Of a stretch of 42,883 nt of DNA, positions 15,753-39,808 are shown piece by piece. This DNA is from Utricularia gibba (taxonomy: Eukaryota; Streptophyta; Magnoliopsida; Lamiales; Lentibulariaceae): assembly GCA_002189035.1 (NCBI GenBank), contig NEEC01000238.1:1-42883 (forward strand), given 5' to 3'. The translations under genes and the position numbers were made by a program. The notes beneath the pieces are model-generated. The model saw nothing but the letters and a program-made list of their open reading frames with translations. It was not told the DNA's origin and ran no database searches. Every line of letters begins with the position of its first letter. The first letter of the stretch is position 1.

Positions 15753-16372
15753 GCATGCGGTTGAGAAAACCATTTTGGGTGCTCATGAAATCCTAACTTC
15801 AATAACTGCATCACGATTTTCGTCGAGTAGGACCAGATTTGGCAAAGGTCAGACCGAACCTTGGGTCAGAACGAAGTTCACAACGACATCACCCGCCCAA
15901 AAACGACAAGCTTTTCCTTGAGAAAACATGTAGGCAGCTATTAAAACCAACGTTAATAAATGCATCAAGTTTTTTGCCGAGCTACAAATGACTATGGCCC
16001 GAGCTCGACTCGACCTCCTGCTCGATACCGTTGCCCCACGAGAGCGCCTTATCAAATATAAAGCATGCGGTTGAGAAAACCATTTTGGGTGCTCATGAAT
16101 CCTAACTTCAATAACTGCATCACGATTTTCGTCGAGTAGGACCGATGTGGCAAAGGAGTCAGACCGAACTATGGTCAGAACGAAGTTCCAAAAGACATCA
16201 CCCGCCCAGAAACGACAAGCTTTTCCTTGAGAAACTATGTAGGCAGCCTAATAAAGCCGAACGTTAATAAATGCATCAATTTTTTTTGCCGGGCTACAAA
16301 TGACTCTGGGACGAGCTCGACTCGACCTCCTGCTCGATACCGTTGCCCCACGAGAGCCTTATCAAATATAAA
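15753..16372 (+). repeat. B'-C pair inserted in the A-B block
   Basis: Unit 15753 has B-type CCAGATTTGG but starts GGTTGAG and has TGTAGGCAGCTATT and TGCTCGAT, so it is B'-like. Unit 16063 is C (GAATCC, AATAAAGCCGAACG, GCCGGGC). It sits between A-B runs in the same way as 10474-11094 and 23455-24057. Confidence 0.75.
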
Positions 16373-18839
16373 GCATGCGGTTGAGAAAACCATTTTGGGT
16401 GCTCATGAAATCCTAACTTCAATAACTGCATCACGATTTTCGTCGAGTAGGACCCGATGTGGCAAAGGAGTCAGACCGAACTATGGTCAGAACGAAGTTC
16501 CAAAGACATCACCCGCCAGAAACGACAAGCTTTTCCTTGAGAAACCATGTAGGCAGCCTATTAAAACCAACGTTAATAAATGCATCACTTTTTTTGACGG
16601 CTAAAAATGACTCTGGGAGCGAGCCCGACTCGACCTTTTGCCGATACCGTGCCCCACTAGAGCACTCCTCAACTACAAAGCATGCGATTGAAAAAGCATT
16701 TTGGGTGCTCATGAAATCCTAACTTCAATAACTGCATCACGATTTTCGTCGAGTAGGACCATTGGCAAAGGAGACAGACCGAACCTTGGGTCAGAACGAA
16801 GTTCACAACGACATCACCCGCCAAAAACGACAAGCTTTTCCTTGAGAAAACCATTGAGGCAGCCTATTAAAACCAACCGTTAATAAATGCATCAAGTTTT
16901 TTGCCGAGCTACAAATGACTATGGGCCCGAGCTCGACTCGACCTCCTACTCGATACCGTTGCCCCACGAGAGCCTTATCAAATATAAAGCATGCGGTTGA
17001 GAAAACCATTTTGGGTGCTCATGAAATCCTAACTTCAATAACTGCATCACGATTTTCGTCGAGTAGGACCCGATGTGGCAAAGGAGTCAGACCGAACCTA
17101 TGGTCAGAACGAAGTTCCAAAAGACATCACCCGCCCAGAAACGACAAGCTTTTCCTTGAGAAACCATGTAGGCAGCCTATTAAAACCAACGTTAATAAAT
17201 GCATCACTTTTTTTGACAGGCTAAAAATGACTCTGGGCGAGCCGACTCGACCTTTTGCCCGATACCGTGCCCCACTAGAGCGCCTCCTCAACTACAAAAG
17301 CATGCGATTGACAAAAGCATTTTGGGTGCTCATGAAATCCTAACTTCAATAACTGCATCACGATTTTCGTCGAGTAGGACCAGATTGGCAAAGGAGACAG
17401 ACCGAACCTTGGGTCAGAACGAAGTTCACAACGACATCACCCGCCAAAAAACGACAAGCTTTTCCTTGAGAAACATTGAGGCAGCCTGTTAATAAATGCA
17501 TCAAGTTTTTTGCCGAGCTACAAATGACTATGGGCCCGAGCTCGACTCGACCTCCTACTCGATACCGTTGCCCCACGAGAGCACTTATCAAATATAAAGC
17601 ATGCGGTTGAGAAAACCATTTTGGGTGCTCATGAAATCCTAACTTCAATAACTGCATCACGATTTTCGTCGAGTAGGACCGATGTGGCAAAGGAGTCAGA
17701 CCGAACCTATGGTCAGAACGAAGTTCCAAAAGACATCACCCGCCAGAAACGACAAGCTTTTCCTTGAGAAACCATGTAGGCAGCCTATTAAAACCCAACG
17801 TTAATAAATGCATCAATTTTTTGACAGGGCTAAAAATGACTCTGGGAGCGAGCCGACTCGACCTTTTGCCCGATACCGTGCCCACTAGAGCGCCTCCTCA
17901 ACTACAAAGCATGCGATTGACAAAAGCATTTTGGGTGCTCATGAATCCTAACTTCAATAACTGCATCACGATTTTCGTCGAGTAGGACCAGATTGGCAAA
18001 GGAGACAGACCGAACCTTGGGTCAGAACGAAGTTCACAACGACATCCCCGCCAAAAACGACAAGCTTTTCCTTGAGAAACCATTGAGGCAGCCTATTAAA
18101 ACCAACCGTTAATAAATGCATCAAGTTTTTTTGCCGAGCTACAAATGACTATGGCCCGAGCTCGACTCGACCTCCTACTCGATACCGTTGCCCCACGAGA
18201 GCCCTTATCAAATATAAAGCATGCGGTTGAGAAAACCATTTTGGGTGCTCATGAAATCCTAACTTCAATAACTGCATCACGATTTTCGTCGAGTAGGACC
18301 CGATGTGGCAAAGGAGTCAGACCGAACCTATGGTCAGAACGAAGTTCAAAAGACATCACCCGCCAGAAACGACAAGCTTTTCCTTGAGAAACCATGTAGG
18401 CAGCCTATTAAAACCCAACGTTAATAAATGCATCACTTTTTTTTGACAGGCTAAAATGACTCTGGGAGCGAGCCCGACTCGACCTTTTTGCCGATACCGT
18501 GCCCACTAGAGCCTCCTCAACTACAAAGCATGCGATTGACAAAAGCATTTTGGGTGCTCATGAAATCCTAACTTCAATAACTGCATCACGATTTTCGTCG
18601 AGTAGGACCAGATTGGCAAAGGAGACAGACCGAACCTTGGTCAGAACGAAGTTCACAACGACATCACCCGCCCAAAAACGACAAGCTTTTCCTTGAGAAA
18701 ACCATTGAGGCAGCCTATTAAAACCAACCGTTAATAAATGCATCAAGTTTTTTGCCGAGCTACAAATGACTATGGGCCCGAGCTCGACTCGACCTCCTAC
18801 TCGATACCGTTGCCCCACGAGAGCCTTATCAAATATAAA
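16373..18839 (+). repeat. Second long A-B dimer run (4 dimers)
   Basis: Eight units in A-B alternation: A at 16373, 16989, 17599, 18219; B at 16680, 17300, 17909, 18528. Unit 17300 is only 299 bp because about 13 bases around 17487 are missing, so GCAGCCT runs straight into GTTAATAAATG. Confidence 0.88.
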
Positions 18840-19143
18840 GCATGCGGTTGAGAAAACCATTTTGGGTGCTCATGAAATCCTAACTTCAATAACTGCATCA
18901 CGATTTTCGTCGAGTAGGACCCGATGTGGCAAAGGAGTCAGACCGAACCTATGGTCAGAACGAAGTTCCAAAAGACATCACCCCGCCAGAAACGACAAGC
19001 TTTTCCTTGAGAAACCATGTAGGCAGCCTATTAAAACCCAACGTTAATAAATGCATCAATTTTTTTGCGGCTACAAATGACTCTGGGCGAGCCCGACTCG
19101 ACCTGCCGATACCGTTGCCCACAGAGCGCTCCTCAAATATAAA

Positions 19144-19440
19144 GCATGCGATTGAAAAAACATTTTGGGTGCTCATGAAATCCTAACTTCAATAACTGCA
19201 TCACGATTTTCGTCGAGTAGGACCGATAAAGGAGTCAGACCGAACTTGGTCAGAACGAAGTTCCAAAAGACATCACCGCCAAAAACGACAAGCTTTTCCT
19301 TGAGAAACTTGAGGCAGCCTATTAAAACCAACGTTAATAAATGCATCAAGTTTTTTGCCGAGCTACAAAATGACTCTGGGCCGAGCTCGACTCGACCTCC
19401 TCGATACGTTGCCCCACGAGAGCACCTTATCAAATATAAA
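19144..19440 (+). repeat. Chimeric satellite unit
   Basis: Starts GATTGA like B, then has GGAGTCAG and TTCCAAAAGAC like A, then TTGAGG, CAAG plus T tract and GCCGAGC like B, then CTCTGGG like C, and CACC near its end. It is 297 bp with visible losses (GACCGATAAAGG, CTCCTCGATACG). Either several exchanges are stacked in one unit or the consensus here is a blend of types. The neighbouring unit 18840 is also atypical, with GTTGCCCACAGAGCGC near its end. Confidence 0.65.
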
Positions 19441-22213
19441 GCATGCGGTTGAGAAAACATTTTGGGTGCTCATGAAATCCTAACTTCAATAACTGCATCA
19501 CGATTTTCGTCGAGTAGGACCCGATGTGGCAAAGGAGTCAGACCGAACCTATGGTCAGAACGAAGTTCCAAAAGACATCACCCGCCAGAAACGACAAGCT
19601 TTTCCTTGAGAAAATGTAGGCAGCCTATAAAACCAACGTTAATAAATGCATCAATTTTTTTTGCGGGCTACAAATGACTCTGGGCCCGAGCTCGACTCGA
19701 CCTCCTGCGATACCGTTGCCCCACGAGAGTGCCTTATCAAATATAAAGCATGCGTTGAGAAAACCATTTTGGGTGCTCATGAATCCTAACTTCAATAACT
19801 GCATCACGATTTTCGTCGAGTAGGACCCGATGTGGCAAAGGAGTCAGACCGAACCTATGGTCAGAACGAAGTTCCAAAAGACATCACCCGCCAGAAACGA
19901 CAAGCTTTTCCTTGAGAAACCATGTAGGCAGCCTATTAAAACCAACGTTAATAAATGCATCACTTTTTTGACAGGCTAAAAATGACTCTGGGAGCGAGCC
20001 CGACTCGACCTTTTGCCGATACCGTGCCCCACTAGAGCGCCTCCTCAACTACAAAGCATGCGATTGACAAAAGCATTTTGGGTGCTCATGAAATCCTAAC
20101 TTCAATAACTGCATCACGATTTTCGTCGAGTAGGACCAGATTGGGCAAAGGAGACAGACCGAACCTTGGGTCAGAACGAAGTTCACAACGACATCACCCG
20201 CCCAAAAACGACAAGCTTTTCCTTGAGAAAACCATTGAGGCAGCCTATTAAAACCAACCGTTAATAAATGCATCAAGTTTTTTGCCGAGCTACAAATGAC
20301 TATGGGCCCGAGCTCGACTCGACCTCCTACTCGATACCGTTGCCCACGAGAGCCTTATCAAATATAAAGCATGCGGTTGAGAAAACCATTTTGGGTGCTC
20401 ATGAAATCCTAACTTCAATAACTGCATCACGATTTTCGTCGAGTAGGACCCGATGTGGCAAAGGAGTCAGACCGAACCTATGGTCAGAACGAAGTTCCAA
20501 AAGACATCACCGCCCAGAAACGACAAGCTTTTCCTTGAGAAACCATGTAGGCAGCCTATTAAAACCCAACGTTAATAAATGCATCACTTTTTTTGACAGG
20601 CTAAAAATGACTCTGGGAGCGAGCCGACTCGACCTTTTGCCCGATACCGTGCCCACTAGAGCGCCTCCTCAACTACAAAGCATGCGATTGACAAAACATT
20701 TTGGGTGCTCATGAAATCCTAACTTCAATAACTGCATCACGATTTTCGTCGAGTAGGACCAGATTTGGCAAAGGAGTCAGACCGAACCTTGGTCAGAACG
20801 AAGTTCACAACGACATCACCCGCCAAAAACGACAAGCTTTTCCTTGAGAAAACCATTGAGGCAGCCTATTAAAACCAACCGTTAATAAATGCATCAAGTT
20901 TTTTGCCGAGCTACAAATGACTATGGGCCGAGCTCGACTCGACCTCCTACTCGATACCGTTGCCCACGAGAGCACTTATCAAATATAAAGCATGCGGTTG
21001 AGAAAACCATTTTGGGTGCTCATGAAATCCTAACTTCAATAACTGCATCACGATTTTCGTCGAGTAGGACCGATGTGGCAAAGGAGTCAGACCGAACCTA
21101 TGGTCAGAACGAAGTTCCAAAAGACATCACGCCCAGAAACGACAAGCTTTTCCTTGAGAAACTATGTAGGCAGCCTATAAAGCCAACGTTAATAAATGCA
21201 TCAATTTTTTTTGCCGGGCTACAAATGACTCTGGGCCGAGCTCGACTCGACTCCTGCTCGATACCGTTGCCCACGAGAGTGCCTTATCAAATATAAAGCA
21301 TGCGGTTGAGAAAACCATTTTGGGTGCTCATGAATCCTAACTTCAATAACTGCATCACGATTTTCGTCGAGTAGGACCCGATGTGGCAAAGGAGTCAGAC
21401 CGAACCTATGGTCAGAACGAAGTTCAAAAGACATCACCCGCCCAGAAACGACAAGCTTTTCCTTGAGAAACATGTAGGCAGCCTATTAAAACCAACGTTA
21501 ATAAATGCATCATTTTTTTGACAGGCTAAAAATGACTCTGGGAGCGAGCCCGACTCGACCTTTTGCCCGATACCGTGCCCCACTAGAGCGCCTCCTCAAC
21601 TACAAAGCATGCGATTGACAAAAGCATTTTGGGTGCTCATGAAATCCTAACTTCAATAACTGCATCACGATTTTCGTCGAGTAGGACCAGATTTGGCAAA
21701 GGAGTCAGACCGAACCTTGGTCAGAACGAAGTTCACAACGACATCACCGCCCAAAACGACAAGCTTTTCCTTGAGAAAATTGAGGCAGCCTATTAAAACC
21801 AACCGTTAATAAATGCATCAAGTTTTTTGCCGAGCTACAAATGACTATGGGCCGAGCTCGACTCGACCTACTCGATACCGTTGCCCCACGAGAGCACCTT
21901 ATCAAATATAAAGCATGCGGTTGAGAAAACCATTTTGGGTGCTCATGAAATCCTAACTTCAATAACTGCATCACGATTTTCGTCGAGTAGGACCCGATGT
22001 GGCAAAGGAGTCAGACCGAACCTATGGTCAGAACGAAGTTCAAAAGACATCACCCGCCCAGAAACGACAAGCTTTTCCTTGAGAAACCATGTAGGCAGCC
22101 TATTAAAACCAACGTTAATAAATGCATCAATTTTTTTGCAGGCTAAAATGACTCTGGGCGAGCCCGACTCGACCTTTGCCGATACCGTGCCCCACGAGCG
22201 CCTTCAATACAAA

Positions 22214-22833
22214 GCATGCGATTGAGAAAACCATTTTGGGTGCTCATGAAATCCTAACTTCAATAACTGCATCACGATTTTCGTCGAGTAGGACCCGATG
22301 TGGCAAAGGAGTCAGACCGAACCTTGGGTCAGAACGAAGTTCCAACGACATCACCCGCCAGAAACGACAAGCTTTTCCTTGAGAAACCATGTAGGCAGCC
22401 TATAAACCAACGTTAATAAATGCATCAATTTTTTTTTTGCCGGGCTACAAATGACTGGGCCCGAGCTCGACTCGACCTCCTGCTCGATACCGTTGCCCCA
22501 CGAGAGTGCCTTATCAAATATAAAGCATGCGGTTGAGAAAACCATTTTGGGTGCTCATGAAATCCTAACTTCAATAACTGCATCACGATTTTCGTCGAGT
22601 AGGACCCGATGTGGCAAAGGAGTCAGACCGAACCTATGGTCAGAACGAAGTTCAAAAGACATCACCCGCCCAGAAACGACAAGCTTTTCCTTGAGAAACC
22701 ATGTAGGCAGCCTATAAAACCAACGTTAATAAATGCATCAATTTTTTTGCCGGGCTACAAATGACTCTGGGCCGAGCTCGACTCGACCTCCTGCTCGATA
22801 CCGTTGCCCCACGAGAGCCTTATCAAATATAAA
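22214..22833 (+). repeat. C-C pair; first unit has a B-type start
   Basis: Unit 22214 starts GCATGCGATTGAG, as expected after an A unit, but then has C-like features (CCCGATGTGG, TTCCAACGAC, GCCGGGC, GAGAGTGCC) and the longest T tract I saw, ten Ts. Unit 22525 is front-A-like (CCTATGG, CAAAAG) and back-C-like. The type switch in 22214 lies between the start and the CCCGATG site, a stretch that includes the invariant core. Confidence 0.65.
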
Positions 22834-23454
22834 GCATGCGGTTGAGAAAACCATTTTGGGTGCTCATGAAATCCTAACTTCAATAACTGCATCACGATTT
22901 TCGTCGAGTAGGACCCGATGTGGCAAAGGAGTCAGACCGAACCTATGGTCAGAACGAAGTTCCAAAAGACATCACCCGCCAGAAACGACAAGCTTTTCCT
23001 TGAGAAACCATGTAGGCAGCCTATTAAAACCAACGTTAATAAATGCATCATTTTTTTGACAGGCTAAAAAATGACTCTGGGAGCGAGCCCGACTCGACCT
23101 TTTGCCGATACCGTGCCCACTAGAGCGCCTCCTCAACTACAAAGCATGCGATTGACAAAAGCATTTTGGGTGCTCATGAAATCCTAACTTCAATAACTGC
23201 ATCACGATTTTCGTCGAGTAGGACCAGATTTGGCAAAGGAGACAGACCGAACTTGGGTCAGAACGAAGTTCAAACGACATCACCCGCCCAAAAACGACAA
23301 GCTTTTCTTGAGAAACCATTGAGGCAGCCTATTAAAACCAACCGTTAATAAATGCATCAAGTTTTTTGCCGAGCTACAAATGACTATGGGCCCGAGCTCG
23401 ACTCGACCTCCTACTCGATACCGTTGCCCACGAGAGCACCTTATCAAATATAAA

Positions 23455-24057
23455 GCATGCGGTTGAGAAAACCATTTTGGGTGCTCATGAAATCCTAACT
23501 TCAATAACTGCATCACGATTTTCGTCGAGTAGGACCAGATTGGCAAAGGACAGACCGAACCTTGGGTCAGAACGAAGTTCACAACATCACCCGCCAAAAA
23601 CGACAAGCTTTTCTTGAGAAAACCATGTAGGCTATTAAAACCAACGTTAATAAATGCATCAAGTTTTTTGCCGAGCTACAAATGACTATGGGCCCGAGCT
23701 CGACTCGACCTCCTGCTCGATACCGTTGCCCCACGAGAGCGCCTCCTCAAATATAAAGCATGCGGTTGAGAAAACCATTTTGGGTGCTCATGAAATCCTA
23801 ACTTCAATAACTGCATCACGATTTTCGTCGAGTAGGACCGATGTGGCAAAGGAGTCAGACCGAACCTTGGTCAGAACGAAGTTCCAACGACATCACCGCC
23901 AAAAACGAAGCTTTTCCTTGAGAAACTATGTAGGCAGCCTAATAAAGCCAACGTTAATAAATGCATCAATTTTTTTTGCCGGGCTACAAATGACTCCGAG
24001 CTCGACTCGACCTCCTGCTCGATACCGTTGCCCCACGAGAGCCTTATCAAATATAAA
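23455..24057 (+). repeat. B'-C pair inserted in the A-B block
   Basis: Unit 23455 is B'-like with the CTCCTCAAAT ending; unit 23758 is C-like. Both carry several small losses (AAAGGACAG, CACAACATCACC, GTAGGCTATT, ACGAAGCTTTT, GACTCCGAG). This is the last such pair before block III begins. Confidence 0.7.
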
Positions 24058-25300
24058 GCATGCGGTTGAGAAAACCATTTTGGGTGCTCATGAATCCTAA
24101 CTTCAATAACTGCATCACGATTTTCGTCGAGTAGGACCCGATGTGGCAAAGGAGTCAGACCGAACCTATGGTCAGAACGAAGTTCCAAAAGACATCACCG
24201 CCAAAACGACAAGCTTTTCTTGAGAAACCATGTAGGCAGCCTATTAAAACCCAACGTTAATAAATGCATCACTTTTTTTTGACAGGCTAAAAATGACTCT
24301 GGGCGAGCCCGACTCGACCTTTTGCCGATACCGTGCCCCACTAGAGCGCCTCCTCAACTACAAAGCATGCGATTGAAAAGCATTTTGGGTGCTCATGAAA
24401 TCCTAACTTCAATAACTGCATCACGATTTTCGTCGAGTAGGACCAGATTTCAAAGGAGTCAGACCGAACCTTGGTCAGAACGAAGTTCACAACGACATCA
24501 CCCGCCCAAAAACGACAAGCTTTTCCTTGAGAAAACCATTGAGGCAGCCTATTAAAACCAACCGTTAATAAATGCATCAAGTTTTTTGCCGAGCTACAAA
24601 TGACTATGGGCCCGAGCTCGACTCGACCTCCTACTCGATACCGTTGCCCCACGAGAGCACCTTATCAAATATAAAGCATGCGGTTGAGAAAACCATTTTG
24701 GGTGCTCATGAAATCCTAACTTCAATAACTGCATCACGATTTTCGTCGAGTAGGACCCGATGTGGCAAAGGAGTCAGACCGAACCTATGGTCAGAACGAA
24801 GTTCCAAAAGACATCACCCGCCCAGAAACGACAAGCTTTTCCTTGAGAAACCATGTAGGCAGCCTATTAAACCCAACGTTAATAAATGCATCACTTTTTT
24901 GACAGGCTAAAAATGACTCTGGGAGCGAGCCCGACTCGACCTTTTGCCCGATACCGTGCCCACTAGAGCGCCTCCTCAACTACAAAGCATGCGATTGACA
25001 AAAGCATTTTGGGTGCTCATGAAATCCTAACTTCAATAACTGCATCACGATTTTCGTCGAGTAGGACCAGATTTGGCAAAGGAGACAGACCGAACCTTGG
25101 TCAGAACGAAGTTCACAACGACATCACCCGCCCAAAAACGACAAGCTTTTCCTTGAGAAAACCATTGAGGCAGCCTATTAAAACCAACCGTTAATAAATG
25201 CATCAAGTTTTTTGCCGAGCTACAAATGACTATGGGCCGAGCTCGACTCGACCTCCTACTCGATACCGTTGCCCCACGAGAGCACCTTATCAAATATAAA

Positions 25301-25918
25301 GCATGCGGTTGAGAAAACCATTTTGGGTGCTCATGAAATCCTAACTTCAATAACTGCATCACGATTTTCGTCGAGTAGGACCCGATGTGGCAAAGGAGTC
25401 AGACCGAACCTTGGTCAGAACGAAGTTCCAAAAGACATCACCCGCCCAGAAACGACAAGCTTTTCCTTGAGAAACCATGTAGGCAGCCTATTAAAACCCA
25501 ACGTTAATAAATGCATCAATTTTTTTGCGGCTACAAATGACTCTGGGCCGAGCTCGACTCGACCTCCTGCCGATACCGTGCCCCACGAGAGCGCCTCCTC
25601 AAATATAAAGCATGCGGTTGAGAAAAACATTTTGGGTGCTCATGAATCCTAACTTCAATAACTGCATCACGATTTTCGTCGAGTAGGACCCGATGTGGCA
25701 AAGGAGTCAGACCGAACCTTGGTCAGAACGAAGTTCACAACGACATCACCGCCCAAAAACGACAAGCTTTTCCTTGAGAAACCATTAGGCAGCCTATTAA
25801 AACCAACGTTAATAAATGCATCAAGTTTTTTGCCGAGCTACAAATGACTATGGGCCGAGCTCGACTCGACCTCCTACTCGATACCGTTGCCCCACGAGAG
25901 CACCTTATCAAATATAAA
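25301..25918 (+). repeat. Transition between A-B and B'-C blocks
   Basis: Unit 25301 begins A/C-like (GAAATCC, TTCCAAAAGAC, AAACCCAACG). It then has GAGCTCGACTCGACC with CCGTGCC and CACGAGAGCGCCTCCTC, mixing A and C endings. Unit 25610 is B-like in the back half (CAAG plus T tract, CTATGGG, TACTCGAT, GAGCACC) with a C-like front (GAATCC, CCCGATG, GGAGTCAG). From 25919 onward the alternation is B'-C, apart from the B-type unit at 28375 in a B' slot. Confidence 0.7.
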
Positions 25919-27759
25919 GCATGCGGTTGAGAAAACCATTTTGGGTGCTCATGAAATCCTAACTTCAATAACTGCATCACGATTTTCGTCGAGTAGGACC
26001 AGATTGGCAAAGGAGACAGACCGAACCTTGGGTCAGAACGAAGTTCCAACGAAATCACCCGCCCAAAAACGACAAGCTTTTCCTTGAGAAAAATGTAGGC
26101 AGCTATTAAAACCAACGTTAATAATGCATCAAGTTTTTTTGCCGAGCTACAAATGACTATGGGCCCGAGCTCGACTCGACCTCCTGCTCGATACCGTTGC
26201 CCCACGAGAGCGCCTCCTCAAATATAAAGCATGCGGTTGAGAAAACCATTTGGGTGCTCATGAATCCTAACTTCAATAACTGCATCACGATTTTCGTCGA
26301 GTAGGACCCGATGTGGCAAAGGAGTCAGACAGAACCTTGGGTCAGAACGAAGTTCCCAACGACATCACCCGCCAGAAACGACAAGCTTTCCTTGAGAAAC
26401 TATGTAGGCAGCCTAAAACCGAACGTTAATAAATGCATCAATTTTTTTGACTACAAATGACTCTGGGCCCGAGCTCGACTCGCTCGATACCGTTGCCCCA
26501 CGAGAGCGCCTCCTCAATATAAAGCATGCGGTTGAGAAAACATTTTGGGTGCTCATGAATCCTAACTTCAATAACTGCATCACGATTTTCGTCGAGTAGG
26601 ACCCGATGTGGCAAAGGAGTCAGACCGAACCTTGGTCAGAACGAAGTTCACAACGACATCACCCGCCAAAACGACAAGCTTTTCCTTGAGAAAACATGTA
26701 GCCTATTAAAACCCAACGTTAATAAATGCATCAAGTTTTTTTGCCGAGCTACAAATGACTATGGGCCCGAGCTCGACTCGACCTCCTGTCGATACCGTTG
26801 CCCCACGAGAGCGCCTCCTCAAATATAAAGCATGCGTTGAGAAAACCATTTTGGGTGCTCATGAATCCTAACTTCAATAACTGCATCACGATTTTCGTCG
26901 AGTAGGACCCGATGTGGCAAAGGAGTCAGACCGAACCTTGGGTCAGAACGAAGTTCCAACGACATCACCCGCCCAGAAACGACAAGCTTTTCCTTGAGAA
27001 ACTATGTAGGCAGCCTATTAAACCAACGTTAATAAATGCATCAATTTTTTTGCCGGGCTACAAATGACTCTGGGCCGAGCTCGACTCGACCTCCTGCTCG
27101 ATACCGTTGCCCCACGAGAGCGCCTTATCAAATATAAGCATGCGGTTGAGAAAACCATTTTGGGTGCTCATGAAATCCTAACTTCAATAACTGCATCACG
27201 ATTTTCGTCGAGTAGGACCCGATGTGGCAAAGGAGACAGACCGAACCTTGGGTCAGAACGAAGTTCACAACGACATCACCCGCCCAAAACGACAAGCTTT
27301 TCCTTGAGAAAACAATGTAGGCAGCTATTAAAACCAACGTTAATAAATGCATCAAGTTTTTTTGCCGAGCTACAAATGACTATGGGCCCGAGCTCGACTC
27401 GACCTCCTGCTCGATACCGTTGCCCACGAGAGCGCCTCCTCAAATATAAAGCATGCGGTTGAGAAAACCATTTTGGGTGCTCATGACATCCTAACTTCAA
27501 TAACTGCATCACGATTTTCGTCGAGTAGGACCCGATGTGGCAAAGGAGTCAGACAGAACCTTGGTCAGAACGAAGTTCCAACGACATCACCCGCCAGAAA
27601 CGACAAGCTTTTCCTTGAGAAACTATGTAGGCAGCCTATAAAGCCGAACGTTAATAAATGCATCAATTTTTTTGCCGGGCTACAAATGACTCTGGGCCCG
27701 AGCTCGACTCGACCTCCTGCTCGATACCGTTGCCCCACGAGAGCGCCTTATCAAATATA

Positions 27760-27916
27760 AAGCATGCGGTTGAGAAAACATTTTGGGTGCTCATGAAATC
27801 CTAACTTCAATAACTGCATCACGATTTTCGTCGAGTAGGACCCGATGTGGCAAAGGAGTCAGACCGAACCTTGGGTCAGAACGAAGTTCACAACGACATC
27901 ACCCGCCCAAAACGAC
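27760..27916 (+). repeat. Half-unit 1 (~157 bp) of the internal duplication
   Basis: Runs from AAGC of AAGCATGC to just before AAGCTT. Aligned with half-unit 2 it shares the AAGC start, TTGAGAAAAC, a 33-bp block (27803-27835 against 27959-27991, 26 identities, no gap) and a weaker colinear match through GAG..GAC..CCT to TT..CACGA / TT..AACGA. AATAACTGCATCA here (27809) pairs with AATAAATGCATCA at 27965, 156 bp away. The GATTTTCG of this half corresponds to the T tract of the other half. Confidence 0.8.
27799..27840 (+). repeat. Invariant 42-bp core of the satellite unit
   Basis: From TCCTAAC to GTAGGA. In my reading it is identical in every unit except 7725, which lacks two bases near 7783 (GCATCGATTTT for GCATCACGATTTT). 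It is bounded by a 5-bp inverted repeat, TCCTA at the left and TAGGA at the right. It contains ACGATTTTCGT, a 4-bp stem with a 3-base centre, followed by CGAG. Flanking sequence differs between types, so the lack of change is local. It may be a protein-binding or chromatin-positioning element; that is inference only. Confidence 0.75.
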
Positions 27917-28071
27917 AAGCTTTTCCTTGAGAAAACAATGTAGGCAGCTATTAAAACCAACGTTAATAAATGCATCAAGTTTTTTGCCGAGCTACAAATG
28001 ACTATGGGCCCGAGCTCGACTCGACCTCCTGCTCGATACCGTTGCCCCACGAGAGCGCCTTATCAAATATA
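27917..28071 (+). repeat. Half-unit 2 (~155 bp) of the internal duplication
   Basis: Runs from AAGCTT to just before the AAGC of the next unit. It is the diverged copy of half-unit 1. It carries most of the differences between types A, B, B' and C: TGTAGG/TTGAGG, the spacer before AACG, the base before the T tract, T number, GCCGAGC/GCCGGGC/GACAGGC and CTATGGG/CTCTGGG. The basic ancestral period is therefore about 156 bp. Confidence 0.8.
27980..27985 (+). repeat. T tract of half-unit 2
   Basis: Each unit has one T run just after ATGCATCA, six Ts in this copy. Across the window it ranges from five (near 39403) to ten (near 22430). Type B/B' has a G before it, C usually an A, and A usually a C. 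Such tracts are known to be stiff and to disfavour nucleosomes, and this one recurs once per ~309 bp. Exact lengths depend on homopolymer accuracy. Confidence 0.7.
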
Positions 28072-28374
28072 AAGCATGCGGTTGAGAAAACCATTTGGGT
28101 GCTCATGATCCTAACTTCAATAACTGCATCACGATTTTCGTCGAGTAGGACCCGATGTGGCAAAGGAGTCAGACCGAACCTTGGTCAGAACGAAGTTCCA
28201 ACGACATCACCCGCCAGAAACGACAAGCTTTTCCTTGAGAAACTATGTAGGCAGCCTAATAACCGAACGTTAATAAATGCATTTTTTTTGCCGGGCTACA
28301 AATGACTCTGGGACCGCTCGACTCGACCTCCTGCTCGATACCGTTGCCCACGAGAGCGCCTCCTCAAATATAAA

Positions 28375-28689
28375 GCATGCGATTGAGAAAACCATTTTGG
28401 GTGCTCATGAAATCCTAACTTCAATAACTGCATCACGATTTTCGTCGAGTAGGACCAGATTTGGCAAAGGAGACAGACCGAACCTTGGGTCAGAACGAAG
28501 TTCACAACGACATCACCCGCCCAAAACGACAAGCTTTTCCTTGAGAAAACCATGTAGGCAGCCTATTAAAACCCAACGTTAATAAATGCATCAAGTTTTT
28601 TGCCGAGCTACAAATGACTATGGGCCCGAGCTCGACTCGACCTCCTACTCGATACCGTTGCCCCACGAGAGCACCTTATCAAATATAAA
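28375..28689 (+). repeat. B-type unit occupying a B' slot in block III
   Basis: Starts GCATGCGATTGAG although the preceding unit (28074) is C, and has CCAGATTTGG, GGAGACAG, TACTCGAT and GAGCACC, all type B states, with CCATGTAGG and AAACCCAACG mixed in. The alternation is not shifted, which is what replacement by gene conversion would produce; an insertion would shift it. Confidence 0.65.
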
Positions 28690-31600
28690 GCATGCGGTTG
28701 AGAAAACCATTTTGGGTGCTCATGAATCCTAACTTCAATAACTGCATCACGATTTTCGTCGAGTAGGACCCGATGTGGCAAAGGAGTCAGACCGAACCTT
28801 GGTCAGAACGAAGTTCCAACGACATCACCCGCCAGAAACGACAAGCTTTTCCTTGAGAAACTATGTAGGCAGCCTAATAAAGCCAACGTTAATAAATGCA
28901 TCAATTTTTTTTGCCGGGCTACAAATGACTCTGGGCCCGAGCTCGACTCGACCTCCTACTCGATACCGTTGCCCCACGAGAGCCTTATCAAATATAAAGC
29001 ATGCGGTTGAGAAAACCATTTTGGGTGCTCATGAAATCCTAACTTCAATAACTGCATCACGATTTTCGTCGAGTAGGACCAGATTGGCAAAGGAGTCAGA
29101 CCGAACCTTGGGTCAGAACGAAGTTCACAACGACATCACCCGCCCAAAAACGACAAGCTTTTCCTTGAGAAAACATTGTAGGCTATTAAAACCCAACGTT
29201 AATAATGCATCAAGTTTTTTGCCGAGCTACAAATGACTATGGGCCCGAGCTCGACTCGACCCCTGCTCGATACCGTTGCCCCACGAGAGCGCCTTCAAAT
29301 ATAAAGCATGCGGTTGAGAAAACCATTTTGGGTGCTCATGACATCCTAACTTCAATAACTGCATCACGATTTTCGTCGAGTAGGACCCGATGTGGCAAAG
29401 GAGTCAGACAGAACCTTGGTCAACGAAGTTCCAACGACATCACCCGCCAAAACGACAAGCTTTTCCTTGAGAAACTATGTAGGCAGCCTAATAAAGCCGA
29501 ACGTTAATAAATGCATCAATTTTTTGCCGGGCTACAAATGACTCTGGGCCGAGCTCGACTCGACCTCCTGCTCGATACGTTGCCCCACGAGAGTGCCTTA
29601 TCAAATATAAAGCATGCGGTTGAGAAAACCATTTTGGGTGCTCATGAAATCCTAACTTCAATAACTGCATCACGATTTTCGTCGAGTAGGACCCGATGTG
29701 GCAAAGGAGACAGACCGAACCTTGGTCAGAACGAAGTTCACAACGACATCACCCGCCAAAAACGACAAGCTTTTCCTTGAGAAAACAATGTAGGCCTATT
29801 AAAACCCAACGTTAATAATGCATCAAGTTTTTTGCCGAGCTACAAATGACTATGGGCCCGAGCTCGACTCGACCTCCTGCTCGATACCGTTGCCCCACGA
29901 GAGCGCCTCCTCAAATATAAAGCATGCGGTTGAAAAACCATTTTGGGTGCTCATGACATCCTAACTTCAATAACTGCATCACGATTTTCGTCGAGTAGGA
30001 CCCGATGTGGCAAAGGAGTCAGACCGAACCTTGGGTCAGAACGAAGTTCCCAACGACATCACCCGCCAGAAACGACAAGCTTTTCCTTGAGAAACTATGT
30101 AGGCAGCCTATAAAACCAACGTTAATAAATGCATCAATTTTTTGCCGGGCTACAAATGACTCTGGGCCCGAGCTCGACTCGACCTCCTGCTCGATACCGT
30201 TGCCCCACGAGAGCGCCTTATCAAATATAAAGCATGCGGTTGAGAAAACCATTTTGGGTGCTCATGAAATCCTAACTTCAATAACTGCATCACGATTTTC
30301 GTCGAGTAGGACCCGATGTGGCAAAGGAGTCAGACCGAACCTTGGGTCAGAACGAAGTTCACAACGACATCACCCGCCCAAAAAAACAAGCTTTTCCTTG
30401 AGAAAACTGTAGGCGCCTATTAAAACCCAACGTTAATAAATGCATCAAGTTTTTTGCCGGCTACAAATGACTATGGGCCCGAGCTCGACTCGACCTCCTG
30501 CTCGATACCGTTGCCCCACGAGAGCGCCTCCTCAAATATAAAGCATGCGGTTGAGAAAACCATTTTGGGTGCTCATGAATCCTAACTTCAATAACTGCAT
30601 CACGATTTTCGTCGAGTAGGACCCGATGTGGCAAAGGAGTCAGACAGAACCTTGGGTCAGAACGAAGTTCCAACGACATCACCCGCCAGAAACGACAAGC
30701 TTTTCCTTGAGAAACATGTAGGCAGCCTAATTAAAACCAACGTTAATAAATGCATCAATTTTTTGCCGGGCTACAAATGACTCTGGGCCGAGCTCGACTC
30801 GACCTCCTGCCGATACCGTTGCCCCACGAGAGCGCCTCCTCAAATATAAAGCATGCGGTTGAGAAAACATTTTGGGTGCTCATGAAATCCTAACTTCAAT
30901 AACTGCATCACGATTTTCGTCGAGTAGGACCCGATGCAAAGGAGTCAGACCGAACCTTGGGTCAGAACGAAGTTCACAACGACATCACCCGCCCAAAAAC
31001 GACAAGCTTTTCCTTGAGAAAACCATGTAGGCAGCCTATTAAAACCAACGTTAATAAATGCATCAAGTTTTTTTGCCGAGCTACAAATGACTATGGGCCC
31101 GAGCTCGACTCGACCTCCTGCTCGATACCGTTGCCCCACGAGAGCGCCTTATCAAATATAAAGCATGCGGTTGAGAAAACCATTTTGGGTGCTCATGAAT
31201 CCTAACTTCAATAACTGCATCACGATTTTCGTCGAGTAGGACCCGATGTGGCAAAGGAGTCAGACCGAACCTTGGTCAAACGAAGTTCCAACGACATCAC
31301 CCGCCAGAAACGAAGCTTTTCCTTGAGAAACTATGTAGGCAGCCTATAAAGCCAAACGTTAATAAATGCATCAATTTTTTTGCCGGCTACAAATGACTCT
31401 GGGCCCGAGCTCGACTCGACCTCCTGCTCGATACCGTTGCCCACGAGAGCCCTTATCAAATATAAAGCATGCGGTTGAGAAAACCATTTTGGGTGCTCAT
31501 GAAATCCTAACTTCAATAACTGCATCACGATTTTCGTCGAGTAGGACCAGATTGGCAAAAGGAGACAGACCGAACCTTGGGTCAGAACGAAGTTCACAAC

Positions 31601-34600
31601 GACATCACCCGCCCAAAAACGACAAGCTTTTCCTTGAGAAAACCATGTAGGCTATTAAAACCAACGTTAATAAATGCATCAAGTTTTTTTGCCGAGCTAC
31701 AAATGACTATGGGCCCGAGCTCGACTCGACCTCCTGCTCGATACCGTTGCCCCACGAGAGCGCCTTATCAAATATAAAGCATGCGGTTGAGAAAACCATT
31801 TTGGGTGCTCATGAATCCTAACTTCAATAACTGCATCACGATTTTCGTCGAGTAGGACCCGATGTGGCAAAGGAGTCAGACCGAACCTTGGGTCAGAACG
31901 AAGTTCCCAACGACATCACCGCCAGAAACGACAAGCTTTTCCTTGAGAAACTATGTAGGCAGCCTAATAAAGCCGAACGTTAATAAATGCATCAATTTTT
32001 TGCCGGGCTACAAATGACTCTGGGCCGAGCTCGACTCGACCTCCTGCTCGATACCGTTGCCCCACGAGAGCGCCTCCTCAAATATAAAGCATGCGGTTGA
32101 GAAAACCATTTTGGGTGCTCATGAAATCCTAACTTCAATAACTGCATCACGATTTTCGTCGAGTAGGACCCGATGTGGCAAAGGAGTCAGACCGAACCTT
32201 GGGTCAGAACGAAGTTCACAACGAAATCACCCGCCCAAAAACGACAAGCTTTTCCTTGAGAAAACTGTAGGCAGCTATTAAAACCAACGTTAATAAATGC
32301 ATCAAGTTTTTTGCCGAGCTACAAATGACTATGGGCCCGAGCTCGACTCGACCTCCTGCTCGATACCGTTGCCCCACGAGAGCGCCTCCAAATATAAAGC
32401 ATGCGGTTGAGAAAACCATTTTGGGTGCTCATGAATCCTAACTTCAATAACTGCATCACGATTTTCGTCGAGTAGGACCGATGTGGCAAAGGAGTCAGAC
32501 CGAACCTTGGGTCAGAACGAAGTTCGACATCACCCGCCCAGAAACGACAAGCTTTTCCTTGAGAAACTATGTAGGCAGCCTAATAAAGCCGAACGTTAAT
32601 AAATGCATCAATTTTTTGCCGGGCTACAAATGACTGGGCCGAGCTCGACTCGACCTCCTGCGATACCGTTGCCCCACGAGAGCGCCTTATCAAATATAAA
32701 GCATGCGGTTGAGAAAACCATTTTGGGTGCTCATGAAATCCTAACTTCAATAACTGCATCACGATTTTCGTCGAGTAGGACCAGATTTGGCAAAGGAGAC
32801 AGACCGAACCTTGGGTCAGAACGAAGTTCACAACGACATCACCCGCCCAAAAACGACAAGCTTTTCCTTGAGAAAATGTAGGCAGCCTATTAAAACCAAC
32901 GTTAATAAATGCATCAAGTTTTTTGCCGAGCTACAAATGACTATGGGCCCGAGCTCGACTCGACCTCCTGCTCGATACCGTTGCCCCACGAGAGCGCCTC
33001 CTCAAATATAAAGCATGCGGTTGAGAAAACCATTTTGGGTGCTCATGACATCCTAACTTCAATAACTGCATCACGATTTTCGTCGAGTAGGACCCGATGT
33101 GGCAAAGGAGTCAGACAGAACCTTGGTCAGAACGAAGTTCCAACGACATCACCCGCCAGAAACGACAGCTTTTCCTTGAGAAACTATGTAGGCAGCCTAA
33201 TAAAGCCGAACGTTAATAAATGCATCAATTTTTTGCCGGGCTACAAATGACTCTGGGCCCGAGCTCGACTCGACCTCCTGCTCGATACCGTTGCCCCACG
33301 AGAGCGCCTTCAAATATAAAGCATGCGGTTGAGAAAACCATTTTGGGTGCTCATGAAATCCTAACTTCAATAACTGCATCACGATTTTCGTCGAGTAGGA
33401 CCCGATGTGGCAAAGGAGTCAGACCGAACCTTGGGTCAGAACGAAAGTTCACAACGACATCACCCGCCCAAAACGACAAGCTTTTCCTTGAGAAACAATG
33501 TAGGCAGCTATTAAAACCAACGTTAATAAATGCATCAAGTTTTTTGCCGAGCTAAATGACTATGGGCCCGAGCTCGACTCGACCTCCTTCGATACCGTTG
33601 CCCCACGAGAGCGCCTCCTCAAATATAAAGCATGCGGTTGAGAAAACCATTTTGGGTGCTCATGAATCCTAACTTCAATAACTGCATCACGATTTTCGTC
33701 GAGTAGGACCCGATGTGGCAAAGGAGTCACAGACCCTTGGTCAGAACGAAGTTCCAACGACATCACCCGCCCAGAAACGACAAGCTTTTCCTTGAGAAAC
33801 TATGTAGGCAGCCTATTAAACCGAACGTTAATAAATGCATCAATTTTTTGCCGGGCTACAAATGACTCTGGGCCGAGCTCGACTCGACCTCCTGCTCGAT
33901 ACCGTTGCCCCACGAGAGCGCCTTATCAAATATAAAGCATGCGGTTGAGAAAACCATTTTGGGTGCTCATGAAATCCTAACTTCAATAACTGCATCACGA
34001 TTTTCGTCGAGTAGGACCAGATTTGGCAAAGGAGAGACCGAACCTTGGGTCAGAACGAAGTTCACAACGACATCACCCGCCCAAAAACGACAAGCTTTTC
34101 CTTGAGAAAACATGTAGGCGCTATTAAAACCAACGTTAATAATGCATCAAGTTTTTTGCCGAGCTACAAATGACTATGGGCCCGAGCTCGACTCGACCTC
34201 CTGCTCGATACCGTTGCCCCACGAGAGCGCCTTCAAATATAAAGCATGCGGTTGAGAAAACCATTTTGGGTGCTCATGATCCTAACTTCAATAACTGCAT
34301 CACGATTTTCGTCGAGTAGGACCCGATGTGGCAAAGGAGTCAGACAGAACCTTGGTCAGAACGAAGTTCCAACGACATCACCCGCCAGAAACGACAAGCT
34401 TTTCCTTGAGAAACTATGTAGGCAGCCTAATAAGCCGAACGTTAATAAATGCATCAATTTTTTGCCGGGCTACAAATGACTCTGGGCCCGAGCTCGACTC
34501 GACCTCCTGCTCGATACCGTTGCCCCACGAGAGCGCCTTATCAAATATAAGCATGCGGTTGAGAAAACCATTTTGGGTGCTCATGAAATCCTAACTTCAA

Positions 34601-37600
34601 TAACTGCATCACGATTTTCGTCGAGTAGGACCCGATGTGGCAAAGGAGTCAGACCGAACCTTGGGTCAGAACGAAGTTCACAACGACATCACCCGCCAAA
34701 ACGACAAGCTTTTCCTTGAGAAAACAATGTAGGCAGCTATTAAAACCCAACGTTAATAAATGCATCAAGTTTTTTGCCGAGCTACAAATGACTATGGGCC
34801 GAGCTCGACTCGACCTCCTGCTCGATACCGTTGCCCCACGAGAGCGCCTTATCAAATATAAAGCATGCGGTTGAGAAAACCATTTTGGGTGCTCATGACA
34901 TCCTAACTTCAATAACTGCATCACGATTTTCGTCGAGTAGGACCCGATGTGGCAAAGGAGTCAGACAGAACCTTGGGTCAGAACGAAGTTCCCAACGACA
35001 TCACCGCGCAGAAACGACAAGCTTTTCTTGAGAAACTATGTAGGCAGCCTAATAAAGCCGAACGTTAATAAATGCATCAATTTTTTTGCCGGGCTACAAA
35101 TGACTCTGGGCCGAGCTCGACTCGACCTCCTGCTCGATACCGTTGCCCCACGAGAGCGCCTTCAAATATAAAGCATGCGGTTGAGAAAACCATTTTGGGT
35201 GCTCATGAAATCCTAACTTCAATAACTGCATCACGATTTTCGTCGAGTAGGACCCGATTTGGCAAAGGAGTCAGACCGAACCTTGGGTCAGAACGAAGTT
35301 CACAACGACATCACCCGCCAAAAACGACAAGCTTTTCCTTGAGAAACATGTAGGCAGCCTTAAAACCAACGTTAATAAATGCATCAAGTTTTTTGCCGAG
35401 CTACAAATGACTATGGGCCGAGCTCGACTCGACCTCCTGCTCGATACGTTGCCCCACGAGAGCCCTTATCAAATATAAAGCATGCGGTTGAGAAAACATT
35501 TTGGGTGCTCATGAATCCTAACTTCAATAACTGCATCACGATTTTCGTCGAGTAGGACCCGATGTGGCAAAGGAGTCAGACCGAACCTTGGGTCAGAACG
35601 AAGTTCCAACGACATCACCCGCCCAGAAACGACAAGCTTTTCCTTGAGAAACTATGTAGGCAGCCTATTAAACCAAACGTTAATAAATGCATCAATTTTT
35701 TTTGCCGGGCTACAAATGACTCTGGGCCCGAGCTCGACTCGACCTCCTGCTCGATACCGTTGCCCCACGAGAGCGCTTATCAAATATAAAGCATGCGGTT
35801 GAGAAAACCATTTTGGGTGCTCATGAAATCCTAACTTCAATAACTGCATCACGATTTTCGTCGAGTAGGACCCGATTGGCAAAGGAGTCAGACCGAACCT
35901 TGGGTCAGAACGAAGTTCACAACGACATCACCCGCCAAAACGACAAGCTTTTCCTTGAGAAAACCATGTAGGCAGCTATTAAAACCAACGTTAATAATGC
36001 ATCAATTTTTTGCCGAGCTACAAATGACTCTGGGCCCGAGCTCGACTCGACCTCCTGCTCGATACCGTTGCCCCACGAGAGCGCCTTATCAAATATAAAG
36101 CATGCGTTGAGAAAACCATTTTGGGTGCTCATGAATCCTAACTTCAATAACTGCATCACGATTTTCGTCGAGTAGGACCCGATGTGGCAAAGGAGTCAGA
36201 CCGAACCTTGGTCAGAACGAAGTTCCAACGACATCACCCGCCCAGAAACGACAAGCTTTTCCTTGAGAAACTATGTAGGCAGCCTAAAAACCAACGTTAA
36301 TAAATGCATCAATTTTTTGCCGGCTACAAATGACTGGGCCGAGCTCGACGACCTCCTGCTCGATACCGTTGCCCACGAGAGCCTTATCAAATATAAAGCA
36401 TGCGGTTGAGAAAACCATTTTGGGTGCTCATGAAATCCTAACTTCAATAACTGCATCACGATTTTCGTCGAGTAGGACCCGATGTGGCAAAGGAGACAGA
36501 CCGAACCTTGGGTCAGAACGAAGTTCACAACGACATCACCCGCCCAAAAAACGACAAGCTTTTCCTTGAGAAAACAATGTAGGCAGCTATTAAAACCAAC
36601 GTTAATAATGCATCAAGTTTTTTGCCGAGCTACAAATGACTATGGGCCCGAGCTCGACTCGACCTCCTGCTCGATACCGTTGCCCCACGAGAGCGCCTTA
36701 TCAAATATAAAGCATGCGGTTGAGAAAACCATTTTGGGTGCTCATGAATCCTAACTTCAATAACTGCATCACGATTTTCGTCGAGTAGGACCCGATGTGG
36801 CAAGGAGTCAGACCGAACCTTGGTCAGAACGAAGTTCCCAACGAATCACCCGCCAGAAACGACAAGCTTTTCCTTGAGAAACTATGTAGGCAGCCTAATA
36901 AACCGAACGTTAATAAATGCATCAATTTTTTTGCCGGGCTACAAATGACTCTGGGCCCGAGCTCGACTCGACCTCCTGCTCGATACCGTTGCCCCACGAG
37001 AGCGCCTCCTCAAATATAAAGCATGCGGTTGAGAAAACCATTTTGGGTGCTCATGAAATCCTAACTTCAATAACTGCATCACGATTTTCGTCGAGTAGGA
37101 CCCGATGTGGCAAAGGAGTCAGACCGAACCTTGGTCAGAACGAAGTTCACAACGACATCACCCGCCCAAAACGACAAGCTTTTCCTTGAGAAAACCATGT
37201 AGGCAGCTATTAAAACCAACGTTAATAAATGCATCAAGTTTTTTTGCCGAGCTACAAATGACTATGGGCCCGAGCTCGACTCGACCTCCTGCTCGATACC
37301 GTTGCCCCACGAGAGCGCCTCCTCAAATATAAAGCATGCGGTTGAGAAAACCATTTTGGGTGCTCATGAATCCTAACTTCAATAACTGCATCACGATTTT
37401 CGTCGAGTAGGACCCGATGTGGCAAAGGAGTCAGACCGAACCTTGGGTCCGAACGAAGTTCCCAACGACATCACCCGCCAGAAACGACAAGCTTTTCCTT
37501 GAGAAACTATGTAGGCAGCCTAATTAACGTTAATAATGCATCAATTTTTTGCCGGCTACAATGACTCTGGGCCCGAGCTCGACTCGACCTCCTGCTCGAT

Positions 37601-39491
37601 ACCGTTGCCCCACGAGAGCGCCTTATCAAATATAAAGCATGCGGTTGAGAAAACCATTTTGGGTGCTCATGAAATCCTAACTTCAATAACTGCATCACGA
37701 TTTTCGTCGAGTAGGACCCGATGTGGCAAAGAGTCAGACCGAACCTTGGGTCAGAACGAAGTTCACAACGACATCACCCGCCCAAAAACGACAAGCTTTT
37801 CCTTGAGAAAACAATGTAGGCAGCCTATTAAAACCCAACGTTAATAATGCATCAAGTTTTTTGCCGAGCTACAAATGACTATGGGCCCGAGCTCGACTCG
37901 ACCTCCTGCTCGATACCGTTGCCCCACGAGAGCGCCTCCTCAAATATAAAGCATGCGGTTGAGAAAACCATTTTGGGTGCTCATGAATCCTAACTTCAAT
38001 AACTGCATCACGATTTTCGTCGAGTAGGACCCGATGTGGCAAAGGAGTCAGACAGAACCTTGGTCAGAACGAAGTTCCAACGACATCACCCGCCAGAAAC
38101 GACAAGCTTTTCCTTGAGAAACTATGTAGGCAGCCTAACCGAACGTTAATAAATGCATCAATTTTTTTGCCGGGCTACAAATGACTCTGGGCCGAGCTCG
38201 ACTCGACCTCCTGCTCGATACCGTTGCCCCACGAGAGCGCCTTATCAAATATAAAGCATGCGGTTGAGAAAAATTTGGGTGCTCATGAAATCCTAACTTC
38301 AATAACTGCATCACGATTTTCGTCGAGTAGGACCAGATTTGGCAAAGGAGTCAGACCGAACCTTGGGTCAGAACGAAGTTCACAACGACATCACCCGCCA
38401 AAAACGAAAGCTTTTCCTTGAGAAACATGTAGGCAGCCTATTAAAACCAACGTTAATAAATGCATCAAGTTTTTTTGCCGAGCTACAAATGACTATGGGC
38501 CCGAGCTCGACTCGACCTCCTGCTCGATACCGTTGCCCCACGAGAGCCTTATCAAATATAAAGCATGCGCGTTGAGAAAACATTTTGGGTGCTCATGAAA
38601 TCCTAACTTCAATAACTGCATCACGATTTTCGTCGAGTAGGACCCGATGTGGCAAAGGAGTCAGACCGAACCTTGGGTCAGAACGAAGTTCCCAACGACA
38701 TCACCCGCCCAAACGACAAGCTTTTCCTTGAGAAACTATGTAGGCAGCCTAATAAAACCAACGTTAATAAATGCATCAATTTTTTTGCCGGGCTACAAAT
38801 GACTCTGGGCCCGAGCTCGACTCGACCTCCTGCTCGATACCGTTGCCCCACGAGAGCGCCTTATCAAATATAAAGCATGCGGTTGAGAAAACCATTTTGG
38901 GTGCTCATGAAATCCTAACTTCAATAACTGCATCACGATTTTCGTCGAGTAGGACCCGATGTGGCAAAGGAGTCAGACCGAACCTTGGGTCAGAACGAAG
39001 TTCACAACGACATCACCCGCCCAAAAACGACAAGCTTTTCCTTGAGAAACCATGTAGGCAGCCTTAAAACCAACGTTAATAAATGCATCAAGTTTTTTGC
39101 CGAGCTACAAATGACTATGGGCCCGAGCTCGACTCGACCTCCTGCTCGATACCGTTGCCCCACGAGAGCGCCTTATCAAATATAAAGCATGCGGTTGAGA
39201 AAACCATTTTGGGTGCTCATGAATCCTAACTTCAATAACTGCATCACGATTTTCGTCGAGTAGGACCCGATGTGGCAAAGGAGTCAGACAGAACCTTGGT
39301 CAGAACGAAGTTCCCAACGACATCACCCGCCAGAAACGACAAGCTTTTCCTTGAGAAACTATGTAGGCAGCCTAATAAAGCCGAACGTTAATAAATGCAT
39401 CATTTTTCCGGGCTACAAATGACTCTGGGCCGAGCTCGACTCGACCTCCTGCTCGATACCGTTGCCCCACGAGAGCGCCTTCAAATATAAA

Positions 39492-39808
39492 GCATGCGGT
39501 TGAGAAAACCATTTTGGGTGCTCATGAAATCCTAACTTCAATAACTGCATCACGATTTTCGTCGAGTAGGACCCGATGTGGCAAAGGAGTCAGACCGAAC
39601 CTTGGGTCAGAACGAAGTTCACAACGACATCACCCGCCCAAAAACGACAAGCTTTTCCTTGAGAAAACTATGTAGGCAGCTATTAAAACCCAACGTTAAT
39701 TAAATGCATCAAGTTTTTTTGCCGAGCTACAAATGACTCTGGGCCCGAGCTCGACTCGACCTCCTGCTCGATACCGTTGCCCCACGAGAGCGCCTCCTCA
39801 AATATAAA
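39492..39808 (+). repeat. Longest satellite unit (317 bp)
   Basis: A B' unit with GTTAATTAAATGCATC instead of GTTAATAAATGCATC, seven Ts, AACTATGTAGG, and CTCTGGG in place of CTATGGG. The extra T creating TTAATTAA is shared with unit 41974 (near 42174), which suggests a common origin of these two units. Confidence 0.7.

What the first reader, a model, noticed from the sequence alone, without database searches (positions are those of the whole stretch)
27760..28071. Each ~309-bp unit is a hidden duplication of a ~156-bp ancestral element
Aligning the two halves of unit 27762-28073 gives 26/33 identities without gaps (27803-27835 against 27959-27991, offset exactly 156). There is colinear weaker similarity on both sides: AAGCATGC against AAGCTTTT, and TTGAGAAAACCAT shared exactly in unit 31467 at 31475 and 31634. 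The halves are now homogenised as a pair and not with each other, so the repeat period changed from ~156 to ~309 in the past. A ~156-bp base period is close to nucleosome size, which is common in centromeric satellites. That last point is general knowledge; the function is inferred.
Basis: partly seen in the sequence, partly recalled or inferred. Interest (0 to 1): 0.75.

Follow-up and report, generated by a model that had tools for sequence, protein, structure and literature searches.

The report
Two-part satellite repeat, probably bladderwort centromere
A long run of repeated plant DNA is built from pairs of related, roughly 157-base blocks, much as primate centromere DNA is, and it probably sits at centromeres of a carnivorous bladderwort in which such repeats have been reported missing.

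Summary
The window is one ~310-bp satellite array whose unit is two related monomers, A (159 bp) and B (155 bp). In the window's own consensus only the first ~77 bp of the halves are detectably alike (0/5000 shuffles); the other ~80 bp are not (z 0.53). With profiles of six monomer groups from this genome, both parts are homologous (z 11.7 and 5.6), with the best register within one base of expected. A and B form two clades, and regular arrays alternate A-B. So a ~157-bp monomer duplicated, diverged, and the pair was amplified, later into 4- and 8-monomer repeats. The family makes up about 4.9 Mb if each of 31,133 module hits is one monomer. One array runs from ~3.49 Mb of a contig that starts with a telomere to that contig's other end, beside retrotransposons; it is probably (peri)centromeric, but CENH3 binding is untested. 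The genome looks like Utricularia gibba, whose putative centromeres were described as lacking satellites (PMC8333044); two telomere-to-telomere contigs gave no pattern match. New member of a known kind; closest is the New World monkey 343-bp alpha dimer.

The parts
1..42883 (+). satellite array, ~138.9 units of ~310 bp (A-B monomer pairs), filling the contig
   Evidence: TRF; 138 exact copies of the 33-bp A core
27760..27916 (+). monomer A of the unit in the finding (157 bp here; consensus 159)
   Evidence: sequence; consensus
27917..28071 (+). monomer B of the unit in the finding (155 bp)
   Evidence: sequence; consensus
27760..27835 (+). A module: the part clearly alike between the halves
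   Evidence: z 9.5, 0/5000; z 11.69, 0/1000
27917..27991 (+). B module, homologue of 27760-27835
27836..27916 (+). A second part ('spacer'), homologous to the B one only when several monomer groups are used
   Evidence: z 0.53; z 5.59
27992..28071 (+). B second part ('spacer')
27803..27840 (+). 38-bp stretch of A: no substitution (12 deleted bases) in 339 pooled main-family units

Best explanation
This is a dimeric satellite DNA. Shown: two monomers of about 157 bp share an ancestor over their full length; their group consensuses are now about 67% identical; the A-B pair is the unit that is repeated; several monomer subfamilies are built on the same pair, including 4-monomer (~625 bp) and 8-monomer (~1,250 bp) higher-order repeats. 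Inferred from established knowledge of satellites: the pair is kept uniform by unequal exchange, gene conversion or break-induced replication acting in register at 310 bp or multiples, so that A converts A and B converts B. Inferred from position: the arrays lie at (peri)centromeres of at least some chromosomes, where monomers of about one nucleosome length would host CENH3 nucleosomes.
For: Halves homologous. For the pooled profiles, B reversed or reverse-complemented scores at or below the shuffle mean, and leaving out the window group or C402 keeps the signal. Two-clade tree, A/B split with FastTree support 1.000. A-B alternation in the regular stretches read from C47, C68, C92, C99, C103 and C106. 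Higher-order repeats: C106 628 bp, 22 copies with mean identity 0.994; C47 1,252 bp; window units two apart more alike than neighbours (0.976 against 0.950). Position: C213 starts with telomere repeats, 71 copies of CCCTAAA, and from about 3,486,175 to its end at 3,704,653 every stretch sampled is this array, with Ty1/copia-type ORFs ending about 300 bp before the array and Ty3/gypsy-type domains further out. C402 end and C414 start also carry the family and have no telomere repeats in the 500 bp read.
Against: No CENH3 data. Telomere-to-telomere contigs C3 and C4 gave no hit to four patterns searched without mismatches. No CENP-B box and no ~10-bp WW periodicity. No pure 156-bp monomer array was found. 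C213's array runs off the contig, so a place near a second telomere is not excluded, and the contig-end survey read only 500 bp per end, most of it telomere repeat where a telomere is present. The window's own second parts alone do not show homology (z 1.13).
Confidence: 0.78

Rival explanations
1. Only the ~77-bp module is shared: it was copied or inserted between two unrelated spacers, or two satellites sharing a module fused, so the unit is not a duplicated 156-bp monomer.
For: In the window's own consensus the other ~80 bp show no homology (z 0.53, 1906/5000; z 1.13, 78/500). A local test on three-monomer consensuses was also not significant (991/10000; the global one gave 144/10000).
Against: Six-group profiles: z 5.59, 0/5000; both halves of the second part significant (8/3000 and 0/3000); best register within one base of expected in both directions. 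Pooled controls with B reversed or reverse-complemented give nothing.
Confidence: 0.04
2. The array is pericentromeric, knob-like or subtelomeric heterochromatin with no kinetochore role, and the real centromeres are elsewhere and satellite-poor.
For: PMC8333044 (passages read) speaks of the absence of satellite repeats in putative centromeric regions of U. gibba; telomere-to-telomere contigs C3 and C4 gave no hit.
Against: C213 runs from a telomere to the array at its other end, with retrotransposon ORFs at the border. Six telomere-bearing ends belong to C1-C4, contigs with no pattern hit at all, so the family is not a general subtelomeric repeat. About 4.9 Mb in nucleosome-length dimers with higher-order repeats resembles centromeric satellites.
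Confidence: 0.27
3. The 38-bp A stretch is a binding box kept by selection (working like a CENP-B box in every second monomer), and it explains why A-B pairs rather than single monomers are amplified.
For: 0 substitutions in 339 pooled units against pi 0.025-0.064 elsewhere; longest substitution-free run 45 bp, reached in 1/5000 shuffles of variable sites.
Against: Variants are shared among units, so events are few; with common variants only, 92/5000 shuffles do as well. 12 deleted bases occur in it, the 34 units at the C213 array edge do carry substitutions there (0.0046 per site), and it differs between subfamilies.
Confidence: 0.15

Closest known systems
New World monkey 343-bp alpha-satellite dimer (PMC4053949, passages read, Fig. 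6 legend)
   Different: unrelated sequence, plant host; here the single-monomer stage was not found in the genome searched
Human alpha satellite SF1/SF2 A/B dimers and their higher-order repeats (PMC8997354, passages read)
   Same: alternating A and B monomers as the base of longer repeats of 2 to 4 dimers; subfamilies built on the same dimer
   Different: no CENP-B box; CENH3 occupancy unknown
Sorghum AB dimeric centromere repeat (PMC4053949, passages read)
   Same: plant centromere repeat with an AB dimer
   Different: there A and B are told apart by SNPs; here A and B differ at about a third (group consensuses) to half (window pair) of aligned positions
Genlisea nigrocaulis 161-bp repeat Gn7c161 (PMC4542322, passages read)
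   Same: same plant family if the genome is Utricularia; similar monomer length; most abundant tandem repeat there and centromere-associated
   Different: its two printed primers match no monomer of six better than shuffles (356/1000 and 445/1000); full sequence not at hand

Membership tests
Satellite DNA with dimeric higher-order repeat | long head-to-tail tandem array | tested here: met
   (138.9 copies); C213 array of ~218 kb, sampled, not read throughout
Satellite DNA with dimeric higher-order repeat | alternating monomer types, same-type copies more alike than neighbours | tested here: met
   A-A 0.974 and B-B 0.950 over sampled pairs of window units against 0.510 A-B. Exceptions in disordered stretches of C106 and C213
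Satellite DNA with dimeric higher-order repeat | the two monomer types share an ancestor over their full length | tested here: met
Centromeric satellite | CENH3 occupancy | not testable with these tools
   no ChIP data held
Centromeric satellite | located at the inner end of chromosome arms, in retrotransposon-rich DNA | tested here: inconclusive
   fits on C213; C402 end and C414 start also carry it; the C213 array runs off the contig and only its border DNA (~15 kb) was examined for retrotransposons
Centromeric satellite | present at all or most centromeres | tested here: inconclusive
   lists that appear to be in contig order begin at C34 or C37 for four patterns without mismatches, so none on C1-C33, which include C3 and C4; diverged copies could be missed
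Alpha-satellite-like with CENP-B box | CENP-B box TTCGNNNNANNCGGG (recalled motif) | tested here: not met
   0 in window; best 3 mismatches in the consensus, which 498 of 500 shuffles equal or beat
Genlisea Gn7c161 repeat | sequence similarity | tested here: inconclusive
   two primers only, no similarity beyond shuffles

The most novel reading that the evidence does not exclude
The genome has two kinds of centromere side by side: chromosomes whose centromeres carry this A-B satellite (about 5 Mb in all, much of it apparently in small contigs, though its share there was not counted), and chromosomes such as C3 and C4 that assemble telomere to telomere without it. The reported absence of centromeric satellites in U. 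gibba would then be partly an assembly effect: only satellite-free centromeres assembled through.
Probability: 0.35. Interest if true: 0.7.

Novelty: new member of a known kind. Interest (0 to 1): 0.42.

Why it matters
It is a clear plant case of the route from a nucleosome-sized monomer to a dimer to 4- and 8-monomer repeats, with enough diverged relatives in one genome to show homology that the window alone hides. If the genome is U. gibba, an abundant satellite (about 5% of the assembly by module count) sits in small contigs and at inner contig ends of a species whose putative centromeres are described in print as lacking satellites (PMC8333044), which makes that statement directly testable.

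Tried and rejected
Genlisea relation: the primers of Gn7c161 scored no better than shuffles. CENP-B box and 10-bp WW periodicity: not found. 'Only a shared module': the window alone suggested this, six-group profiles reject it. A strong claim for the invariant 38-bp A stretch: it first looked extreme (0 substitutions in 138, 151 and 50 units), but variants are shared among units, and with common variants only 92/5000 shuffles do as well, so it is kept as a lead. A fuzzy search (up to 6 edits) for the 33-bp cores found 138 A but only 51 B sites, probably because B varies more; units cut at the B start number 138 in the window, all at least 80% identical to the consensus. Sequencing noise as the source of variation: C106 higher-order repeats are 99.4% alike, so noise is small there; not tested for C225 itself. 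Rows left out before counting: one 602-bp interval, units outside 270-345 bp, C213 edge units from the pooled 339, one of 23 C106 intervals. IQ-TREE did not run (thread setting), so the tree rests on FastTree alone.

Full report
What is there. The window is contig C225 of a 100.09-Mb, 516-contig plant assembly (a 484-aa rbcL ORF lies on C516). All 42,883 bases are one tandem array of ~310-bp units, 138.9 copies. The assembly looks like Utricularia gibba: C451 is 6,822,880 bp against 'Unitig_8 (6.8 Mb)' in PMC8333044 (passages read), and PMC5793159 (passages read) describes a PacBio U. gibba assembly with contig N50 3.4 Mb. That paper gives 581 contigs, not 516, so the identification is likely but not proven.

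Check of the observation. 26/33 identities at offset 156 and the two TTGAGAAAACCAT copies are as stated. Consensus halves A (159 bp) and B (155 bp) align far better than dinucleotide shuffles (local z 13.0, global z 7.3, 0/2000), and 157 is by far the best circular self-offset. Split in two, the first ~77 bp carry the signal (z 9.5, 0/5000) and the remaining ~80 bp none (z 0.53, 1906/5000). On the window alone, a shared module between unrelated spacers would have been an equally good reading.

Relatives decide it. Pattern searches found diverged copies in the same genome. C106 holds a 628-bp repeat of four monomers B1-A1-B2-A2 (22 copies, mean pairwise identity 0.994), whose monomers are 78-84% identical to the window's A and B in local alignments. 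C47 holds an eight-monomer repeat of 1,252 bp; C68, C92 and C99 hold related arrays; C103 is another dimer family, 83-91% identical to the nearest of six reference monomers; the end of C402 holds an old subfamily inside a ~2,326-bp complex unit. Consensuses of three A and three B monomers (window and C106) gave a weak signal in the second part (global 144/10000, local 991/10000); profiles of the same monomers gave 33/10000. Profiles of six monomer groups (window with C213 edge; C103; three positions of the C106/C47 repeats; C402), aligned within A and within B separately, gave z 11.69 (0/1000) for the module and z 5.59 (0/5000) for the second part, both of its halves significant (8/3000, 0/3000), and the best register within one base of expected in both directions. 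The group consensuses agree at 101/151 aligned positions. Dropping C402 (z 4.60) or the window group (z 6.67) keeps the signal. For these pooled profiles B reversed or reverse-complemented scores at or below the shuffle mean. Single groups alone range from z 1.1 to 4.0, and for one of them (C106_A2) reversed B scores nearly as high as B (-16 against -12), so the case rests on the pooled profiles. The relatives were found through module motifs, which biases module similarity but not the second part. In a FastTree of 22 monomers A and B form two clades, split support 1.000, with C402 monomers near the base of each.

How it is kept. A-A neighbours of the main type at ~140-170 bp were found twice and B-B once in the assembly by exact patterns, against 3,874 exact copies of the 33-bp A core. 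The unit of homogenisation is therefore the pair, or a multiple: in the window, units two apart are more alike than neighbours (0.976 against 0.950). In-register unequal exchange, conversion or break-induced replication is the established kind of cause and is inferred here. Disordered stretches with broken monomers and same-type neighbours do occur, in C106 and in the C213 array near 3.50 Mb. The outermost units of the C213 array still alternate A-B, so no older single-monomer zone was seen there.

Amount and place. A pattern with 21 specified bases and up to 3 mismatches matches 31,133 times, its reversed control 0; if each is one ~156-bp monomer that is about 4.9 Mb. C213 begins with telomere repeats (bases 1-493), and from about 3,486,175 to its end at 3,704,653 every stretch sampled is this array on the minus strand. 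The border holds Ty1/copia-type ORFs ending about 300 bp from the array and, further out, domains of a Ty3/gypsy-type element (the gypsy label rests on recalled domain order). Of 30 ends (500 bp each) of 15 other large contigs, one is all N and two carry this family (C402 end, C414 start), both without telomere repeats; where a telomere is present most of the 500 bp is telomere repeat, so this survey says little about subtelomeres. C3 and C4 carry telomere repeats at both ends, C1 and C2 at one. Lists that appear to be in contig order begin at C34 or C37 for patterns without mismatches, so C1-C4 show no match; diverged copies could be missed. So the family is probably (peri)centromeric on some chromosomes, is not a general subtelomeric repeat, and is not detected on at least two whole chromosomes.

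A lead. A 38-bp stretch of A has no substitution in 339 pooled units, though 12 bases are deleted, and 34 units at the C213 array edge do have substitutions there (0.0046 per site). Because variants are shared, the fairer tests give 1/5000 (any variant) and 92/5000 (common variants only). The stretch differs between subfamilies. It resembles the conserved and variable domains described for other satellites (recalled; only a search listing was seen).

Known or new. Dimeric higher-order repeats are common in plants and animals (PMC4053949, passages read), and the New World monkey 343-bp repeat with weakly related halves has the same kind of history. A/B dimers as the base of longer repeats are described for human alpha satellite (PMC8997354, passages read). 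No CENP-B box is present. In the held library, four searches with Utricularia and centromere, satellite or telomere terms (titles and starts of abstracts of the listed papers only, not all papers that matched) showed no title that describes this repeat. PMC8333044 speaks of absence of satellite repeats in the putative centromeric regions, citing its reference 15; the 2017 genome paper I looked up (DOI recalled) is not held.

Noticed in passing
27803-27840 and the other units: 38-bp stretch of monomer A without substitutions in 339 pooled units from the window, ten other small contigs and C213, while the B counterpart varies.
   Followed up: partly
L074 (C402:2619908-2629907): A ~2,326-bp complex repeat unit made of about six old A/B monomers or parts of them plus ~1.5 kb of other DNA, four full periods seen, at a contig end.
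   Followed up: no
L032 571-5076 (C213 array border): Ty1/copia-type gag and pol domains in two adjacent open frames ending about 300 bp before the satellite array; Ty3/gypsy-type domains further out in L033.
   Followed up: partly
C3 and C4 (telomere-to-telomere contigs): No match to any of four module patterns without mismatches, unlike the small satellite contigs.
   Followed up: partly
C1, C2, C409, C505: Contig lengths are exact multiples of 2,500 (8,500,000; 6,192,500; 2,492,500; 3,452,500) and their far ends lack telomere repeats; perhaps trimmed records.
   Followed up: no
C2:3012594-3013507, C515 and others: rbcL-like fragments outside C516, most with stop codons, probably plastid DNA transferred to the nucleus or mitochondrion.
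   Followed up: no
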